Shown here: positions 40,873 to 56,129 of the stretch, piece by piece
Layout of the letters: the number at the start of each line of letters is the position of its first letter
Position numbering within the stretch: the first letter of the stretch is position 1
Source of the DNA: Egicoccus sp. AB-alg2
GTDB lineage: Bacteria; Actinomycetota; Nitriliruptoria; Nitriliruptorales; Nitriliruptoraceae
DNA length: 64,000 bases
Assembly: GCF_041821065.1 (NCBI RefSeq)
Contig: NZ_JBGUAX010000006.1
Coordinates: 1 to 64,000, forward strand
Reading direction: 5' to 3'
Program-made: the position numbers and the translations under genes
The notes under the pieces: generated by a model
What the model was told of the DNA's origin: nothing
Databases searched by the model: none
Seen by the model: only the letters and a program-made list of their open reading frames with translations

Positions 40873-43416
40873 TCACTCGGTCGCGATCGCGTCCAGGACG
40901 TCCAACCTGGCCGCCCGGCGCGCGGGCCGCAGCGCCGCGACCACCCCGACGACGGCGCCGAGCGCCACCACCAACGCGAGCTGCCCGACCGGCGCCGCGA
41001 ACGTGCCGAAGCCCTCGTCCACCGCGATCGCGCGGATGAACACCCAGCCGAGGAAGGTGCCCAACACCAGACCGGTTGCGGTCCCGAACAGCGCGACGAT
41101 CACCGACTCCCAGCGCACCATCGCCCGCAGCTGACGGCGGGTCTGCCCGAGCGCGCGGAGCAGTCCGATCTCCCGCGTGCGCTCGTGCACGGACAGCGAC
41201 AGCGTGTTGGTGATGCCCATCAGCGCGATGACGATGGCCAGGGCCAGCAGCACGTAGACGATGCCGAGCAGCTGGTCCACGTCGCCGACGGCCCGTTCCG
41301 TGAACGCCTCGCGGTCGAGGACGTCGGGACTGCCGTGCCGGGCGGCGACCGCCTCCACGGCGGCCTGTCCCTGCGCGACCGACACGCCGTCGGCGACGTC
41401 GACCAGCGCCGAGACGTAGGCCAGCTGGACCGCGTGCGGCGCGTAGGCGTCGAACGGCACGATCAGCGTGCCGACCGCGTCGGCCGCCTGCGACTCGAAG
41501 ACCGCGCCGATCCGTTGCGAGAGGACCGTGCCGTCGACCAGCGCCACCTCGACGATGTCGCCGAGGGCCCATCCCTCCTCCTCGGCGGTCGCGCGCGACA
41601 CGGCGATGCCGTCGTCGGGCAGGTCGTAGAGCGAACCCTCGACGACGTCGAGCCCCAGCATCCCGTCGAGGGCGGCGGGGTCGACGACCGAGAAGACGCG
41701 TTCGCGGCCGTCGACCAGCCCGGCCCCCAGCGCGAGCCCGAGGGCCCGGTCGACCTCGGGCAGCTCGCGCACCTCGGCGACCAGGTCGGGGCTGAGCCCC
41801 GCGCCGCTGAACCCGCGCGACTGGACCACCAGGTCACCGCCGAAGCCGCCGCTGATCGCGTCGTCGATCGTGGCCTTCACCGATCCGGCCACGACGGTGA
41901 ACAGGGTCACGATGCCGACCCCGACCATCAGCGCCGAGGACGTGCTGGCGGTGCGTCGCGGGTTGCGGACGGCGTTGCGTCGTGCGAGCGCGCCGGTGAC
42001 GCCGCGCAGGCGCTGGACGGGTCCGGCGACCAGCGCCGTCATGGGCCGGGCGGTGACCGGCCCGAGCAGGAACACCCCGATCGACACCGCGACGGCGGCC
42101 ACCGCCGCCCGCCGCAACGCGCCCGCGTCGGCGGTCAGGGCCAGTGCGACGAACACCCCGCCGGTGACCACCAGGGCCAGCCCGATGCCCAGCCGTACGC
42201 GGGACTGGTCGCTGCGGTCGACCGACACCTCGCGCAGGGCGGCCAGTGGCGCCACCCGTGACGCCCGCACCGCCGGCAGCAGGCTCGCCAGCAGCGTCAC
42301 GCCGACGCCGACCGCGAACGCGCCGACCAGCGCGCGGCCACCCACCACCAGGCCGGTGCCCTCGACGGGGAACCCGAACTGCGCGAGCAGGCCGAGCAGG
42401 CCGGCGGCCAGCGCGATGCCGAGCCCCAGCCCGAGGACCGACGCCACCAGGCCGGTCAGCACCGCCTCGAGCAGCACGGAGGCCAGCACCTGCCGCCGCG
42501 ACGCCCCGAGTGCCCGCAACAGCGCCGACTCGCGCAGACGCTGGGCGACGGTGATGGAGAACGTGTTGTAGATGCTGAACGTGGCCACCAGCAGCGCGAT
42601 GGCGGCGAAGACCAGCAGGAAGGCCTCGAAGAAGTTCAGGAAGTCGCGGCCGAGGTCGTCCAGGGCCTCCTCGGTGTAGACGGTGCCGGTGACGGCCTCG
42701 GTGCCGTCCGGCAGGAGAGCGGCCGCGCGATCGGCCAACTCCTGCTCCGACACGCCGGACCCGGCGGCGAGCAGGATCCGGGTGACGCGGTCGTCACGGC
42801 CGAGCAGCAGCCGCTGAGCCTCCTCGGTCGTGAAGGCGGTGACGGTGACCCCGGCCGCCGAGCCGCCGCGCGGCGCGAGCAGCCCGACGACCTCGACGTC
42901 GATCGGCGCGGGGGTCCGCACGATCGTGGTGTCGCCGACGGCGAGGTCGCCGACCTCGGCGGTGTCGACGTCGAGGACCACCTCGCCCGGTCCGGCGGGT
43001 GCGCGGCCCTCGACCAGGTCGTAGGGCGCCAGCGTGGCGTCTTCGATCCAGTTGACGCCCAGCGTCGGGGGGCCCTCGCCACCGATGGAGGCGCCGTCGG
43101 CGCCGACGACCTGCGCCAGCGCCTCGATCTCCGGGGCGACCGAGCCGACACCGTCCACCCCGGCCAACTCGTCGACGAGGGCGGCGTCGACCAGTCCGCG
43201 CTGACGGGTCACGTCGTCGCCGCCGGTGCCCTCCGCGCGCACGACCGTGTCGATGCCGGCGTTCACGTCCGTGAAGACGGTCCGGAAGCTGCCCCGGATG
43301 GTGTCGCTGAGCACGAGCGTGCCCACGAGGAAGGCCGTGCCGAGCACCACGGCGAGCGCGGTGCCGAACAGCCGGCGGCGATGCTGCCAGGCGGTGGCGA
43401 GGGTGATCCGCAACAT
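40873..43416 (-). CDS. ABC transporter permease with two FtsX modules
   Basis: This 847-residue protein has an N-terminal helix (FGTALAVVLGTAFLVGTLVLS) and a large outer domain. Three helices follow (about 265-380), then a second helix, outer domain and three-helix set ending at the C-terminus. Both FtsX modules carry the typical segment (ESALLRALGASRRQVL, REIGLLRALGQTRRQLR). It works with the ATPase at 43421, its partner four bases upstream. MacB/LolCDE-type mechanotransmission, rather than simple transport, is likely. The substrate is unknown. Confidence 0.93.
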   Translation of the reverse strand: MLRITLATAWQHRRRLFGTALAVVLGTAFLVGTLVLSDTIRGSFRTVFTDVNAGIDTVVRAEGTGGDDVTRQRGLVDAALVDELAGVDGVGSVAPEIEALAQVVGADGASIGGEGPPTLGVNWIEDATLAPYDLVEGRAPAGPGEVVLDVDTAEVGDLAVGDTTIVRTPAPIDVEVVGLLAPRGGSAAGVTVTAFTTEEAQRLLLGRDDRVTRILLAAGSGVSEQELADRAAALLPDGTEAVTGTVYTEEALDDLGRDFLNFFEAFLLVFAAIALLVATFSIYNTFSITVAQRLRESALLRALGASRRQVLASVLLEAVLTGLVASVLGLGLGIALAAGLLGLLAQFGFPVEGTGLVVGGRALVGAFAVGVGVTLLASLLPAVRASRVAPLAALREVSVDRSDQSRVRLGIGLALVVTGGVFVALALTADAGALRRAAVAAVAVSIGVFLLGPVTARPMTALVAGPVQRLRGVTGALARRNAVRNPRRTASTSSALMVGVGIVTLFTVVAGSVKATIDDAISGGFGGDLVVQSRGFSGAGLSPDLVAEVRELPEVDRALGLALGAGLVDGRERVFSVVDPAALDGMLGLDVVEGSLYDLPDDGIAVSRATAEEEGWALGDIVEVALVDGTVLSQRIGAVFESQAADAVGTLIVPFDAYAPHAVQLAYVSALVDVADGVSVAQGQAAVEAVAARHGSPDVLDREAFTERAVGDVDQLLGIVYVLLALAIVIALMGITNTLSLSVHERTREIGLLRALGQTRRQLRAMVRWESVIVALFGTATGLVLGTFLGWVFIRAIAVDEGFGTFAAPVGQLALVVALGAVVGVVAALRPARRAARLDVLDAIATE

Positions 43417-43420
43417 GGCG

Positions 43421-44206
43421 TCAGGCCTCGAGGTGCTTCATGCGGTCGAGGACCTTCTCCCCGTCCGGGTCCTCGAGGCGGTCGACGAGGCGGCCGTCGG
43501 CGAGGAAGAGCACCTCGTCGGCGTAGCCGGCCGCGGTCGGGTCGTGGGTGACCATGACGACGGTCTGCCCGAAGTCGTCGACGGCCCGTCGAAGGAAGCC
43601 CAGCACCTCGGCGCCCGAGCGTGAGTCGAGGTTGCCGGTGGGCTCGTCGGCGAAGACGACCGCGGGGCGGCTGACCAGGGCCCGGGCGACGGCCACGCGC
43701 TGCTGTTGCCCGCCGGACAGCTCCGAGGGGCGGTGGCCGAGCCGATCCCCCAGCCCGATGACGTCGATCACGGTTGCGAACCAGTCGGGGTCGGGATCGG
43801 CGCCGACGAGCGCCAGCGGCAGCGTGATGTTCTCCCGCGCGGTCAGGGTCGGCAGCAGGTTGTAGGCCTGGAAGACGAACCCGATGCGTTCGCGGCGCAG
43901 CACCGTCAGCTGCGGGTCGCTGAGGGTGCCCAGCGAGACGTCACCGATCCAGGCCTCGCCGGAGGTGAGCGTGTCCAGCCCGGCCAGGCAGTGCATCAGC
44001 GTGGACTTGCCGGACCCGGACGGCCCCATGACGGCCGTGAAGCGGCGGGCGGGAACGTCGACGCTCAAGCCGTCGAGGGCGCGGACGGCGGTGTCGCCGC
44101 GGCCGTACACCTTGACGGCGTCGACGGCGCGGGCCGCCGGGCGTGCGGCCCCGGCAGCGGCGGCGGGCGCGAGCGCCCCGGTCGTGGAGGAGGGAGGGGT
44201 GTCCAT
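43421..44206 (-). CDS. ABC transporter ATPase, MacB/LolD type
   Basis: This 261-residue ATPase has Walker A GPSGSGKST, Q-loop FVFQAYNLLPTLTARENI, signature ELSGGQQQRVAVARAL, Walker B VVFADEPTGNLD and H-loop VTHDP. The N-terminal 25 residues are Ala/Pro-rich. It energises the FtsX permease downstream. A TAGCGT -10 box ends eight bases before the ATG, so the transcript may be leaderless. Confidence 0.95.
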   Translation of the reverse strand: MDTPPSSTTGALAPAAAAGAARPAARAVDAVKVYGRGDTAVRALDGLSVDVPARRFTAVMGPSGSGKSTLMHCLAGLDTLTSGEAWIGDVSLGTLSDPQLTVLRRERIGFVFQAYNLLPTLTARENITLPLALVGADPDPDWFATVIDVIGLGDRLGHRPSELSGGQQQRVAVARALVSRPAVVFADEPTGNLDSRSGAEVLGFLRRAVDDFGQTVVMVTHDPTAAGYADEVLFLADGRLVDRLEDPDGEKVLDRMKHLEA

Positions 44207-44530: not shown

Positions 44531-44561
44531 TTGACCTCGAGCCTCCTCGAGGTCGTAGCGT
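44531..44561 (+). promoter_or_regulatory. MerR/SoxR-type promoter of the exporter operon
   Basis: TTGACC (44531-44536) and TAGCGT (44556-44561) are separated by 19 bp. A perfect inverted repeat gacctcgag-N4-ctcgaggtc (44533-44554) overlaps the -35 box and fills the spacer. The over-long spacer with a centred dyad is the hallmark of MerR-family promoters, and the half-site resembles the SoxR box. Start of transcription should fall near 44568, about 40 bases before the ATG. Confidence 0.75.
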
Positions 44562-44606: not shown

Positions 44607-45656
44607 ATGAACGAGGTGATCCGGGCCACCGGCCTGGTCAAGCGCTACAAGGAGGTCACGGCCCTCGACGGGCTCGACCTCGTCGTCCCCGAGGGCACCG
44701 TGCTCGGGCTGCTGGGCCCGAACGGCGCCGGCAAGACGACGGCCGTGCGCATCCTGACGACGCTGCTGGTCCCCGACGAGGGACACGTCGAGGTGGCCGG
44801 GATCGACGCGTTGCACGACCCGGAGGCCGTCCGCAAGCGGATCGGTCTGTCGGGACAGTACGCCGCCGTCGACGAACAGCTGACGGGGTTCGAGAACCTC
44901 GACATGATCGGCCGGCTGTACAAGCTCGGACGGCCTCGCGCACGCCAGCGGGCCGGCGAACTGCTCGAGCGCTTCCGGCTCGCCGACGCCGGCAACCGCC
45001 CGGTGAAGACCTACTCGGGCGGTATGCGCCGACGGTTGGACCTCGCCGGCGCACTCGTCGCCGAGCCGGCCGTGCTGTTCCTCGACGAGCCGACGACCGG
45101 GCTCGACCCGCGCAGCCGGTCCGACATGTGGGACGTCATCCGGGAACTGGTCGGGCGCGGCACCACGCTGCTGCTCACGACCCAGTACCTCGAGGAGGCG
45201 GACCTGCTCGCGGACGACATCGTGGTGATCGATCGTGGACAGGCCATCGCGCGTGGGACCGCTGACCAGCTCAAGGCCCAGGTGGGCGGGGAGCGCGTCG
45301 AGGTGGTGGTGACCCACGAGGGCGATCTGGCCGCGGCCGAGGCGATCCTCGACGAGGTGGCCGTCGGCGTGGTGCAGGTCGAGTCGCACACGCGGCTGCT
45401 GACCGCCCCGGTCACCGGCGGCGCCGACGACCTGATGCGGACGCTGCGCAGCCTCGACGCCCGCGGGGTGAAGATCAGCGACGTCGGGCTGCGGCGACCC
45501 ACCCTCGACGACGTCTTCCTCACCCTCACCGGCCACACCGCCGAGGAGGTCGAGTCCGACACCGGCGACGGATCGTCCGCGCCACCGGCCGACGCGGCCG
45601 CCGCCAGCCCACTGGTCACCGCGAGCGACGACACCTCGCAGGAGCACGCCCGATGA
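44607..45656 (+). CDS. ABC transporter ATPase, DrrA/daunorubicin-resistance type
   Basis: This 349-residue ATPase has Walker A GPNGAGKTT, signature YSGGMRRRLDLAGAL, Walker B VLFLDEPTTGLD and H-loop TTQYLEEAD. The DrrA-type C-terminal region is DDVFLTLTGH, with a low-complexity tail. It powers the DrrB-like permease downstream (overlap ATGA) to expel a hydrophobic or redox-active drug. The ATG at 44607 has a GAGAGGA site; the GTG at 44589 is less likely. It is driven by the MerR/SoxR-type promoter at 44531. Confidence 0.95.
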   Translation: MNEVIRATGLVKRYKEVTALDGLDLVVPEGTVLGLLGPNGAGKTTAVRILTTLLVPDEGHVEVAGIDALHDPEAVRKRIGLSGQYAAVDEQLTGFENLDMIGRLYKLGRPRARQRAGELLERFRLADAGNRPVKTYSGGMRRRLDLAGALVAEPAVLFLDEPTTGLDPRSRSDMWDVIRELVGRGTTLLLTTQYLEEADLLADDIVVIDRGQAIARGTADQLKAQVGGERVEVVVTHEGDLAAAEAILDEVAVGVVQVESHTRLLTAPVTGGADDLMRTLRSLDARGVKISDVGLRRPTLDDVFLTLTGHTAEEVESDTGDGSSAPPADAAAASPLVTASDDTSQEHAR

Positions 45657-46456
45657 GCAGCCTGACCTACGCCCTCGCCGACGGCGCCGTCGTCGCCAAG
45701 CGCAACCTCATCAAGATCAAGCGCGTGCCCGAGGTGCTCGTGTTCGTGCTGATCTCGCCGATCATGTTCGTGCTGCTGTTCGCCTACGTGTTCGGCGAGT
45801 CGATCCAGATCCCGGGGGTCGACTACAAGGAGTACCTGATCGCCGGGATCTTCGCGCAGACGGTGGTGTTCGGCGCCACGTTCACCGGCGCCGGGCTGGC
45901 CGAGGACATGCAGAAGGGCATCATCGACCGGTTCCGGTCCCTGCCGATGTCCCGGTCGGCCGTGCTGGTCGGACGCACCGGCTCCGACATCGCCTACAAC
46001 GTGCTGTCGATCGTCATCATGTCGCTGACCGGGCTGATCGTGGGGTGGCGGATCCGGGGCTCGGTGCTCGATGCCCTGGCCGCGTACCTGCTGCTGCTGG
46101 TGTTCGCCTACGCGATCTCGTGGATCATGGCCTTCGTGGGACTGCTCGTCCCCAGCGTGGAGGTCATCAACAACGCCTCGTTCATCGTGATCTTCCCGCT
46201 CACGTTCATCGCCAACACGTTCGTGCTGAGCGATGCGCTGCCCGGACCGCTGCAGACGATCGCCGAATGGAACCCGGTGTCCAGCGTCACGCACGCCGCC
46301 CGGGTCCTGTTCGGCAACATCGACCCGTCGATGCCGGTCCCGGACGTGTGGTCCTTCCGGCACCCGGTCGCCTACACGCTGCTGTGGGTGGTCATCATCC
46401 TGGCGGTGTTCGTGCCATTGAGCGTGCGCCAGTACAAGCGCTCCACCACGAAGTGA
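45653..46456 (+). CDS. ABC-2 type permease, DrrB-like
   Basis: This 267-residue membrane protein has six helices. The ABC-2 signature lies in EDMQKGIIDRFRSLPMSRSAVLVGRT, and the family-typical end is EWNPVSSVTHAARVLFGN. It forms the membrane part of the exporter with the DrrA-like ATPase. The operon ends seven bases before the convergent end of the quinone-reductase gene. Confidence 0.94.
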   Translation: MSSLTYALADGAVVAKRNLIKIKRVPEVLVFVLISPIMFVLLFAYVFGESIQIPGVDYKEYLIAGIFAQTVVFGATFTGAGLAEDMQKGIIDRFRSLPMSRSAVLVGRTGSDIAYNVLSIVIMSLTGLIVGWRIRGSVLDALAAYLLLLVFAYAISWIMAFVGLLVPSVEVINNASFIVIFPLTFIANTFVLSDALPGPLQTIAEWNPVSSVTHAARVLFGNIDPSMPVPDVWSFRHPVAYTLLWVVIILAVFVPLSVRQYKRSTTK

Positions 46457-54589: not shown

Positions 54590-55183
54590 TCAGATCCATC
54601 CCAATGGCGGGTAGGGGTCGTGGCGGCGCACCTGACGCAGATTCCGGGCCCACCAGGCCAGCACGGTCAGGAATCGGTCCGCCGCGGGGGCGACGCCGGG
54701 TTCCCGAGGGCGCCCCTGGGCGTCGAACGCGTCGGCGCCATGGAAACTGACGGTCTCCCGCACGACGACGGCATGCAACTCCGCGAGCACCAACCGCAGC
54801 TGCTCGGTCGCCCGCAGGCCGCCGGACACGCCGCCGTAGCTGACCACGCCGACCGGCTTGGCGAACCACTCCCGGCGCAGCGCGTCGATCGCCGTCTTCA
54901 GCGGCCCGGGGAAGCTGTGGTTGTACTCGGGCACCACCAGCACGACGGCATCGGCGCCGTCGACGAGTTTGCGGAAACGGTCGGGATCGGCCCCGATGTC
55001 GGCCAGGTCCATCAGCTCCGCGGCGAACCCGTCCCACGCGCCGAGCTGCCCCAGGAACCAGTCGGCGATGCGTGGCCCGGTGCGGCCCCGGGGCGTGCTG
55101 GCGAGCACGACGGCGAGGTCGAGCGGTGCCTCGCGTGCGTCGACGAGGGTGGGGGCGGTCGACCGGTCGACGGAAGACGGCAT
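54590..55183 (-). CDS. NADPH-dependent FMN reductase
   Basis: This 197-residue flavodoxin-like reductase has an N-terminal strand (DLAVVLASTPRGRTGPRIADW). The FMN-phosphate and ring contacts lie in VPEYNHSFPGPLKTAIDAL and SYGGVSGG. It reduces FMN or quinones with NADPH. I chose ATG at 55183 for its GAGGAG site; an in-frame ATG at 55210 is possible. It is driven by the MerR/SoxR-type promoter at 55238. Confidence 0.93.
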   Translation of the reverse strand: MPSSVDRSTAPTLVDAREAPLDLAVVLASTPRGRTGPRIADWFLGQLGAWDGFAAELMDLADIGADPDRFRKLVDGADAVVLVVPEYNHSFPGPLKTAIDALRREWFAKPVGVVSYGGVSGGLRATEQLRLVLAELHAVVVRETVSFHGADAFDAQGRPREPGVAPAADRFLTVLAWWARNLRQVRRHDPYPPLGWI

Positions 55184-55237
55184 GCGGACTCCTCGGTGCG
55201 GCGGGGGCATGGGGTTCGGTCCCGGCGCACGCAGGGG

Positions 55238-55268
55238 ACGGTAGGACCTCGACGTAGGTCGAGGTCAA
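55238..55268 (-). promoter_or_regulatory. MerR/SoxR-type promoter of the FMN reductase gene
   Basis: On the minus strand TTGACC (55263-55268) and TACCGT (55238-55243) are 19 bp apart. A perfect 9-4-9 inverted repeat gacctcgac-N4-gtcgaggtc (55245-55266) overlaps the -35 box and fills the spacer. It has the same layout as the promoter at 44531. It lies entirely between the surE stop and the reductase start, so it serves only that gene. Confidence 0.75.
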
Positions 55269-55286: not shown

Positions 55287-56129
55287 TCAGCCGGCCGACA
55301 GTTTGACGACCTCGGCTGCGTCGACGTCGGGTGCGGGCCCGTGCTCGACCGACGTCAGGGCGGTCAGCGTCACCCACCCGTCGAGGCACAGGGCGGTGTC
55401 GCAGTCCGGGTCCAGGCCGGAGCTGCGGTCGGTCACCTCCATGGTCAACGCTTCGCCCTGCACGTCGGCGGAGGCGAGGTTGAAGTAGCCGAACCGGTCC
55501 AGGCGAGCCCAGCGCGCGCCGCGCAGCCGGTCGTGGGGAAGACCCGGCACGTTGACGTTCAGCACCGAGGGGGCCGGGGCCGTCAGCAGCCACGCGGTGG
55601 CCTGCACGGCGACCTCGACGGCCGTCGCCCACGGCCACTCGTCGACGCGGTCGACGTCGAGGCTGACGGCCAGGCCGCTGCCCCCGAACGTGGCGGCGGT
55701 CAGGGCGCCGCCGACCGTGCCGGAATGGACCACGGAGTGGCCGGTGTTCATGCCCGCGTTGACGCCGGAGACCACGAGTTCGGGGGCCGGCCCGAACGCG
55801 CCCAGCGACGCCGCCATCACGGCCAGCCCGGGCGGTCCGTCGAGGGCGTAGGCCTCCACCCCGTCGACGTCCCGTCGTCGCAGCCCGACCCCGACGTCCG
55901 GGTCGTAGCGGCCGATGCCGGTGCCGGTCCCGCTGAGGTCGCTGGACGGCGCGGCAACCAGCACGTCACCGAAGCGCTCGGCCAGTGCGACGGCGAGCAG
56001 CCGCAGACCGGGCGAGTCGATCCCGTCGTCGTTGGTGACCAGGATGCGGCCCGCACGCCGCTCGACGACGGTCGCGTCCACCTCGATGCTGCCCTCGCGG
56101 TGGTGGCGCGAGGTCGGTTCGTCGCTCAT
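55287..56129 (-). CDS. surE: SurE 5'/3'-nucleotidase
   Basis: This 280-residue phosphatase has the metal motif ILVTNDDGIDSPGL and conserved SGVNAGMNTG. SurE removes phosphate from nucleoside monophosphates and some polyphosphates. It overlaps the PfkB kinase gene by four bases (ATGA), so these opposed phosphatase and kinase genes share an operon. Confidence 0.94.
   Translation of the reverse strand: MSDEPTSRHHREGSIEVDATVVERRAGRILVTNDDGIDSPGLRLLAVALAERFGDVLVAAPSSDLSGTGTGIGRYDPDVGVGLRRRDVDGVEAYALDGPPGLAVMAASLGAFGPAPELVVSGVNAGMNTGHSVVHSGTVGGALTAATFGGSGLAVSLDVDRVDEWPWATAVEVAVQATAWLLTAPAPSVLNVNVPGLPHDRLRGARWARLDRFGYFNLASADVQGEALTMEVTDRSSGLDPDCDTALCLDGWVTLTALTSVEHGPAPDVDAAEVVKLSAG

What the first reader, a model, noticed from the sequence alone, without database searches (positions are those of the whole stretch)
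55238..55268. Second SoxR/MerR-type promoter drives an FMN reductase 11 kb away
The minus strand has TTGACC-N19-TACCGT with perfect dyad gacctcgac/gtcgaggtc, the same layout and outer half-site as at 44531. It sits exactly in the 103-base gap between the surE stop and the reductase start. Streptomyces SoxR regulons also contain a flavin reductase. Two such boxes in 64 kb, each in front of a gene class expected for SoxR, argue strongly for a regulon.
Basis: partly seen in the sequence, partly recalled or inferred. Interest (0 to 1): 0.72.

Follow-up and report, generated by a model that had tools for sequence, protein, structure and literature searches.

The report
SoxR-controlled promoter of a flavin reductase
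A short mirror-image DNA switch in front of a flavin-reductase gene is very probably one of six identical switches by which the redox sensor SoxR turns on detoxifying enzymes and exporters in this actinobacterium, a known kind of circuit in a lineage where I found no description of it.

Summary
The box is real and as described: minus strand TTGACC-N19-TACCGT, perfect 9-4-9 dyad (55245-55266), in the 103-base gap between surE and a PF03358 reductase. It is no chance match: the genome holds exactly six perfect TTGACCTCGA-N6-TCGAGGTC sites (about 2e-4 expected). All have a 19-bp spacer and a TA[CG][CG]GT -10, and each precedes a redox enzyme, a DrrA-type exporter or a DUF6506 gene. Two are in the window; a third lies 980 bp past its end. 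One clear SoxR (TIGR01950, 211 bits, CX2CXCX5C) is encoded on another contig. Comparative tests favour SoxR. Of 48 other genomes carrying the box, 46 encode SoxR (phylum background 90/396). In two relatives the homologous reductase is divergently adjacent to soxR, in one with the exact box between. The SDR target occurs in 12 of 14 soxR+ and 0 of 21 soxR- genomes of the family, usually divergent from soxR. The two other MerR-type regulators with recognisable boxes use different half-sites. The SoxR-regulon interpretation is supported computationally; no experiment was done. New member of a known kind (Streptomyces SoxR regulons also contain a flavoprotein reductase). A side lead, SoxR operator switching within this class, is more interesting than the finding.

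The parts
55245..55266 (-). SoxR-type operator: perfect dyad GACCTCGAC-N4-GTCGAGGTC
   Evidence: arms 55245-55253 / 55258-55266, 100%; one of exactly six perfect copies in the genome
55263..55268 (-). -35 element TTGACC
   Evidence: sequence; same register in all six boxes
55238..55243 (-). -10 element TACCGT, 19 bp from the -35; all six boxes have TA[CG][CG]GT
54590..55183 (-). target gene: flavodoxin-like NAD(P)H-dependent FMN/quinone reductase (PF03358), probable start ATG 55183 (the longer ORF starts at 55210)
   Evidence: Pfam 103 bits; PDB relatives Ylr011w, chromate reductase, YieF, azoreductase
55287..56129 (-). surE homologue (PF01975), upstream neighbour transcribed in the same direction; not itself behind a box
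44531..44561 (+). second box in the window: TTGACC-N19-TAGCGT with dyad GACCTCGAG-N4-CTCGAGGTC (44533-44554)
44607..45656 (+). target gene: DrrA-type ABC exporter ATPase (TIGR01188, 345.7 bits, over cut-off)
45653..46456 (+). DrrB-type ABC-2 permease, translationally coupled to the ATPase
   Evidence: PF01061

Best explanation
The 55238-55268 element is a SoxR-activated promoter of the MerR class. A SoxR dimer (gene at G000:C8:50221-50643, unlinked) sits on the GACCTCGA/TCGAGGTC dyad between a -35 and a -10 box that are 19 bp apart, too far for RNA polymerase. When redox-active compounds oxidise its [2Fe-2S] cluster, SoxR untwists the spacer and starts transcription about 7 nt past the -10, giving a leader of about 45-50 nt before the reductase ATG at 55183. 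The reductase then presumably reduces quinone-like or other redox-cycling compounds. The same switch drives five other transcription units (two DrrA-type exporters, an SDR, a berberine-bridge-like FAD oxidase and a DUF6506 protein), so the cell answers redox-active compounds by modifying and exporting them directly, without SoxS. Shown here: the sites, their promoter geometry, the presence of SoxR, co-occurrence, and synteny in relatives. Inferred: binding, redox activation, transcription start and substrate.
For: Six perfect boxes and no intermediate set: next best matches have broken half-sites. All six lie before genes with 19-bp spacing and TA[CG][CG]GT. A single SoxR with CIGCGCLSLETC (TIGR01950 211 bits), closest solved structure E. 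coli SoxR 2ZHG, E 2e-43, with the matching LHFYE recognition helix. Register is identical to the SoxR site CCTCAAGTTAACTTGAGG (PMC4411124; the E. coli promoter sequence is found once in 5350 of 5426 genomes), with A changed to G in each half. 46 of 48 genomes carrying the exact box have SoxR against 90 of 396 in the phylum, Fisher 3e-24. In the class, 5 of 6 genomes with TTGACCTCRA-N6-TYGAGGT have SoxR, and the two soxR-less congeners have no box. The reductase homologue is divergent from soxR in G044, with TTGACCTCAAGTTACCTTGAGGTCCTA between them, and in G038. The box is conserved before homologues: SDR in G042 (72%), FAD oxidase in G046 (59%), DrrA in G046 (75%, 17 of 19 positions). The SDR occurs in 12/14 soxR+ and 0/21 soxR- family genomes, p 1e-7, and is divergent from soxR in eight. 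Reductase homologues in two Streptomyces records, Actinokineospora, Nocardia puris, Nocardioides and Lysobacter carry 18/19-match boxes.
Against: No binding or expression data. The DrrA orthologues of G042, G044, G038, G055, G059 and G060 (all soxR+) lack a box, so regulon membership drifts. Most reductase homologues in Nocardia and Rhodococcus checked lack a box. Two Rathayibacter genomes have the exact box before a non-SoxR MerR gene and lack SoxR, so the box is not unique to SoxR. G004 has a box but no SoxR found (74% complete).
Confidence: 0.88

Rival explanations
1. The six boxes form a MerR-type regulon, but of another MerR-family activator in the genome, such as the TipA-like protein (C1:488947) or the MerR protein with a C-terminal glyoxalase-like region (C4:217855).
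For: Eleven MerR_1 matches are encoded. Elsewhere the exact box precedes a non-SoxR MerR gene (Rathayibacter L125, L130).
Against: Those two regulators have their own promoter dyads upstream with other half-sites: TTGCACCTGACGTTACGTCAGGTCGTA (TipA-like) and TTGCTCCTGACGCGGCGTGAGGTCATA. The boxes follow soxR between genomes, and homologous targets lie beside soxR, not beside other MerR genes.
Confidence: 0.07
2. The dyad is a chance or structural feature (for example a GC-rich inverted repeat or terminator) and has no regulator.
For: Perfect 9-4-9 dyads of any sequence occur five times in the window; the -10 is far from the usual consensus and no ordinary sigma-70 promoter is found.
Against: Six identical copies against about 2e-4 expected, all upstream of genes with fixed spacing, conserved before homologues in other genera; no run of T as in a terminator.
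Confidence: 0.02
3. It is a SoxR site, but the physiological role is not response to redox-active compounds; SoxR here senses another signal (for example nitric oxide) or the reductase acts on something else.
For: SoxR signals and SoxR-target substrates differ between bacteria; the reductase's substrate was not tested, and its NCBIfam matches (SsuE, CE1759) are far below cut-off.
Against: Target classes (flavoprotein reductase, oxidoreductases, ABC exporter) match the Streptomyces coelicolor regulon, which answers the redox-active antibiotic actinorhodin (PMC4146615).
Confidence: 0.1

Closest known systems
Streptomyces coelicolor SoxR regulon (six direct targets: SCO0320ext, SCO1178, SCO1909, SCO2478, SCO4266, SCO7008; PMC4146615)
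   Same: SoxR without SoxS controlling several scattered genes directly; includes a flavoprotein reductase (SCO2478), oxidoreductases and an ABC transporter; site between -35 and -10; six units in both.
   Different: Here the operator is CCTCGA rather than CCTCAA, the exporters are DrrA-type rather than the SCO7008 type, and a berberine-bridge-like oxidase and a DUF6506 protein are included. Orthology of our reductase to SCO2478 is inferred from boxed Streptomyces homologues (50-53% identity), not tested directly.
Escherichia coli SoxR-soxS
   Same: Same operator register, CCTC..GAGG, 19-bp spacer; SoxR with CX2CXCX5C and LHFYE helix.
   Different: No single SoxS relay indicated; targets carry the boxes themselves; A to G change in each half-site.
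Stenotrophomonas maltophilia SoxR-mfsA (PMC4411124)
   Same: soxR divergent from a target with one site between; TTGACC -35 and 19-bp spacer. G044 and G038 show the same head-to-head plan with the reductase.
   Different: In the window's genome soxR has been separated from its targets; the target is a reductase, not an MFS pump.

Membership tests
SoxR-regulated promoter | Dyad of the CCTC[AG]A / T[TC]GAGG type between -35 and -10 | tested here: met
   A to G in both halves relative to E. coli
SoxR-regulated promoter | 19-bp spacer with TTGAC-type -35 and a -10 | tested here: met
   TTGACC-N19-TACCGT; same in all six boxes. The -10 is weak by consensus
SoxR-regulated promoter | A SoxR protein (HTH plus CX2CXCX5C cluster motif) in the same genome | tested here: met
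   C8:50221-50643, TIGR01950 211 bits against cut-off 116.9; CIGCGCLSLETC
SoxR-regulated promoter | Site conserved before homologues in soxR+ relatives and absent without soxR | tested here: met
   SDR, FAD oxidase, DrrA and reductase; absent in soxR-less G040 (DrrA) and G052 (reductase). Not universal: several soxR+ genomes lack it before DrrA
SoxR-regulated promoter | SoxR binds the site and is needed for induction | not testable with these tools
   needs EMSA and a soxR mutant
NADPH-dependent FMN reductase family (PF03358) | Pfam profile match and the PEYNxSxPxxLK motif | tested here: met
   PF03358 103 bits; PEYNHSFPGPLKTAID in the sequence
SsuE or CE1759-type FMN reductase | NCBIfam cut-off | tested here: not met
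   22.5 and 22.8 bits against cut-offs 164 and 176

The most novel reading that the evidence does not exclude
SoxR has switched operators within this class of actinobacteria. SoxR orthologues with arginine at E. coli position 29 mostly face a TTGACTTGAAGT-N2-ACTTCAA operator, while in the window's genome and its soxR+ congener SoxR has histidine there, and the orthologous SDR promoter carries TTGACCTCRA-N6-TYGAGGTC instead. Protein and all its scattered sites would have changed together.
Probability: 0.45. Interest if true: 0.55.

Novelty: new member of a known kind. Interest (0 to 1): 0.33.

Why it matters
It shows a direct, SoxS-free SoxR regulon in an actinobacterial class outside Streptomyces, for which I found no paper, and it predicts six targets that can be tested, including a DUF6506 protein of unknown function now tied to redox stress. 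It also shows that three SoxR units lie within 21 kb. The operator-switch lead, if true, would offer a natural series for studying how a MerR-family sensor and its scattered sites change specificity together.

Tried and rejected
A loose pattern with 2 mismatches gave about 80 noise hits, so only perfect sites were counted as boxes; weaker true sites may be missed. A single-residue rule (His or Arg at position 29 decides the operator) was rejected as stated: G044, G046 and G003 have Arg with ACC-type boxes. Autoregulation of soxR in this genome: only a degenerate dyad GCGACCTCCAGTAATGTCGAGGTTCCG without -35/-10 lies about 90 bp upstream; not counted as a box. Exact-box co-occurrence within the class alone is only weakly significant (p 0.02); the strength comes from synteny and the 48-genome test. 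That test is biased towards large genomes with many regulators, so its p-value overstates the case. The 56 box loci from the genome-contig scan were surveyed only mechanically for downstream genes.

Full report
What is there. The minus strand at 55268-55238 reads TTGACC-TCGACCTACGTCGAGGTCC-TACCGT, and the central 22 bases are a perfect dyad. The reductase matches PF03358 with 103 bits and has chromate, azo and quinone reductases as its solved relatives.

Is it more than chance? In the whole genome (4.84 Mb, 29 contigs; the window is C6:1-64000) there are exactly six perfect TTGACCTCGA-N6-TCGAGGTC sites where 5e-5 to 2e-4 are expected. All six have a -10 of the form TA[CG][CG]GT at 19 bp and a gene start downstream. 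The six units are: DrrA-type ABC ATPase at C2:546985; berberine-bridge-like FAD oxidase at C3:296210 (assigned from its sequence, no profile run); DrrA/DrrB exporter at window 44531; reductase at window 55268; SDR oxidoreductase at C6:64980, 980 bp beyond the window; DUF6506 protein (PF20116) at C6:256983.

Which regulator? The genome encodes one SoxR at C8:50221-50643 with the cluster motif CIGCGCLSLETC (TIGR01950 211 bits against a cut-off of 116.9), closest by sequence to E. coli SoxR 2ZHG. The box has the same register as the published E. coli SoxR box CCTCAAGTTAACTTGAGG and the S. maltophilia mfsA promoter TTGACC-N19 (PMC4411124), with one base changed in each half. Eleven MerR_1 matches exist; the two with a recognisable promoter dyad of their own have CCTGACG-type half-sites, which argues against them.

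Co-occurrence. In 66 genomes of the class, 24 have SoxR over the cut-off, and the pattern TTGACCTCRA-N6-TYGAGGT occurs in six genomes, five of them with SoxR; the two soxR-less congeners have none and the soxR+ congener has one (p 0.02). A scan of 84,980 species for the exact box with its -10 gave 56 stretches, nearly all in actinobacteria. Of 48 of those genomes, 46 encode SoxR, against 90 of 396 in a sample of the phylum (p 3e-24, overstated by genome-size bias). The two exceptions are Rathayibacter, where the box precedes another MerR gene.

Synteny and footprints. The reductase homologue stands divergently next to soxR in G044, with TTGACCTCAAGTTACCTTGAGGTCCTA between the two genes, and in G038, with a weaker TTGACTTCACGTCAACTTTAACTCCTA. 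G054 (soxR+) has TTGACTTGAAGTTGGGTTCAACTCATA before its reductase, resembling the operator beside its own soxR; G052 (no soxR) has nothing. The SDR target is present in 12 of 14 soxR+ and none of 21 soxR- genomes of the family (p 1e-7) and is divergent from soxR in G036, G037, G045, G054, G055, G056 and G059, and at a longer distance in G060; the operator lies between them in all but G060. Box conservation before homologues: SDR in G042, FAD oxidase and DrrA in G046. DrrA orthologues in several other soxR+ genomes lack a box, so membership in the regulon changes over time.

Wider comparison. Of 39 reductase homologues examined, those in Kitasatospora papulosa and Streptomyces griseomycini, Actinokineospora, Nocardia puris, Nocardioides and Lysobacter antibioticus have 18-of-19 boxes at the promoter, while the rest score at background. 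In S. coelicolor the SoxR regulon has six genes, among them the flavoprotein reductase SCO2478 and the ABC transporter SCO7008, and boxes before SCO2478 homologues are reported in all seven Streptomyces species tabulated (PMC4146615).

Mechanism. By homology to known SoxR promoters, reduced SoxR holds the overlong promoter inactive and oxidised SoxR untwists the 19-bp spacer so that RNA polymerase can use both elements. Start of transcription, binding and inducers are inferred. The most likely role of the reductase is two-electron reduction of quinone-like compounds so that they do not redox-cycle, alongside export by the DrrA-type pumps and oxidation/reduction by the SDR and FAD enzymes; this is inference from family membership.

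Side lead. Nearly all soxR genes of this class have a MerR-type operator directly upstream on the opposite strand. Most are of the type TTGACTTGAAGT-N2-ACTTCAA and belong to SoxR proteins with LR[FY]YE in the recognition helix, whereas the window's genome and its soxR+ congener have LHFYE and CCTCRA sites, though their SoxR groups in the tree with the class's Arg-type proteins (supports 100/99 for the wider group). The orthologous SDR promoter has changed type. Arg at this place does not by itself set the operator, since G044, G046 and G003 are exceptions.

Taxonomy. G450, labelled same phylum, has the same contig, coordinates and score for its SoxR match as G099, which is the genome of locus L148, Patulibacter minatonensis, so the phylum is Actinomycetota; the class was not named.

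Verdict. Observation confirmed, interpretation supported and extended from two boxes to six; ordinary in kind, hence a modest interest score.

Noticed in passing
G000:C6:64980-65010 (980 bp beyond window end), G000:C6:256983-256953, C2:546985-547015, C3:296210-296180: Four further perfect SoxR boxes outside the window, before an SDR, a DUF6506 gene, a second DrrA-type ABC ATPase and a berberine-bridge-like FAD oxidase. Three boxes lie within 21 kb on C6 although soxR is on C8.
   Followed up: yes
L049-L071 upstream of soxR; L225-L233 upstream of SDR: Two operator types for SoxR orthologues within one class (TTGACTTGAAGT-N2-ACTTCAA against TTGACCTCRA-N6-TYGAGGT), with His or Arg at E. coli position 29 partly following the type.
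   Followed up: partly
L005 (G000:C8) about 90 bp before soxR: Degenerate dyad GCGACCTCCAGTAATGTCGAGGTTCCG with neither -35 nor -10, possibly the remnant of a divergent promoter, since relatives have soxR divergent from the SDR.
   Followed up: partly
L125 1-8000 and L130 1-8000 (Rathayibacter): The exact box stands 37 nt before a MerR-family gene that is not SoxR, in genomes without SoxR; another regulator has taken or kept this operator.
   Followed up: no
L003 (G000:C4) and L006 (G000:C1): A MerR protein with a glyoxalase-like C-terminal region and a TipA-like regulator each have their own promoter dyad (CCTGACG half-sites) upstream, looking autoregulated.
   Followed up: no
window 40873-44206: A FtsX-like permease and its ATPase (MacB/LolD-like by sequence) are encoded on the minus strand next to the DrrAB exporter, starting 324 bases before the 44531 box.
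   Followed up: no
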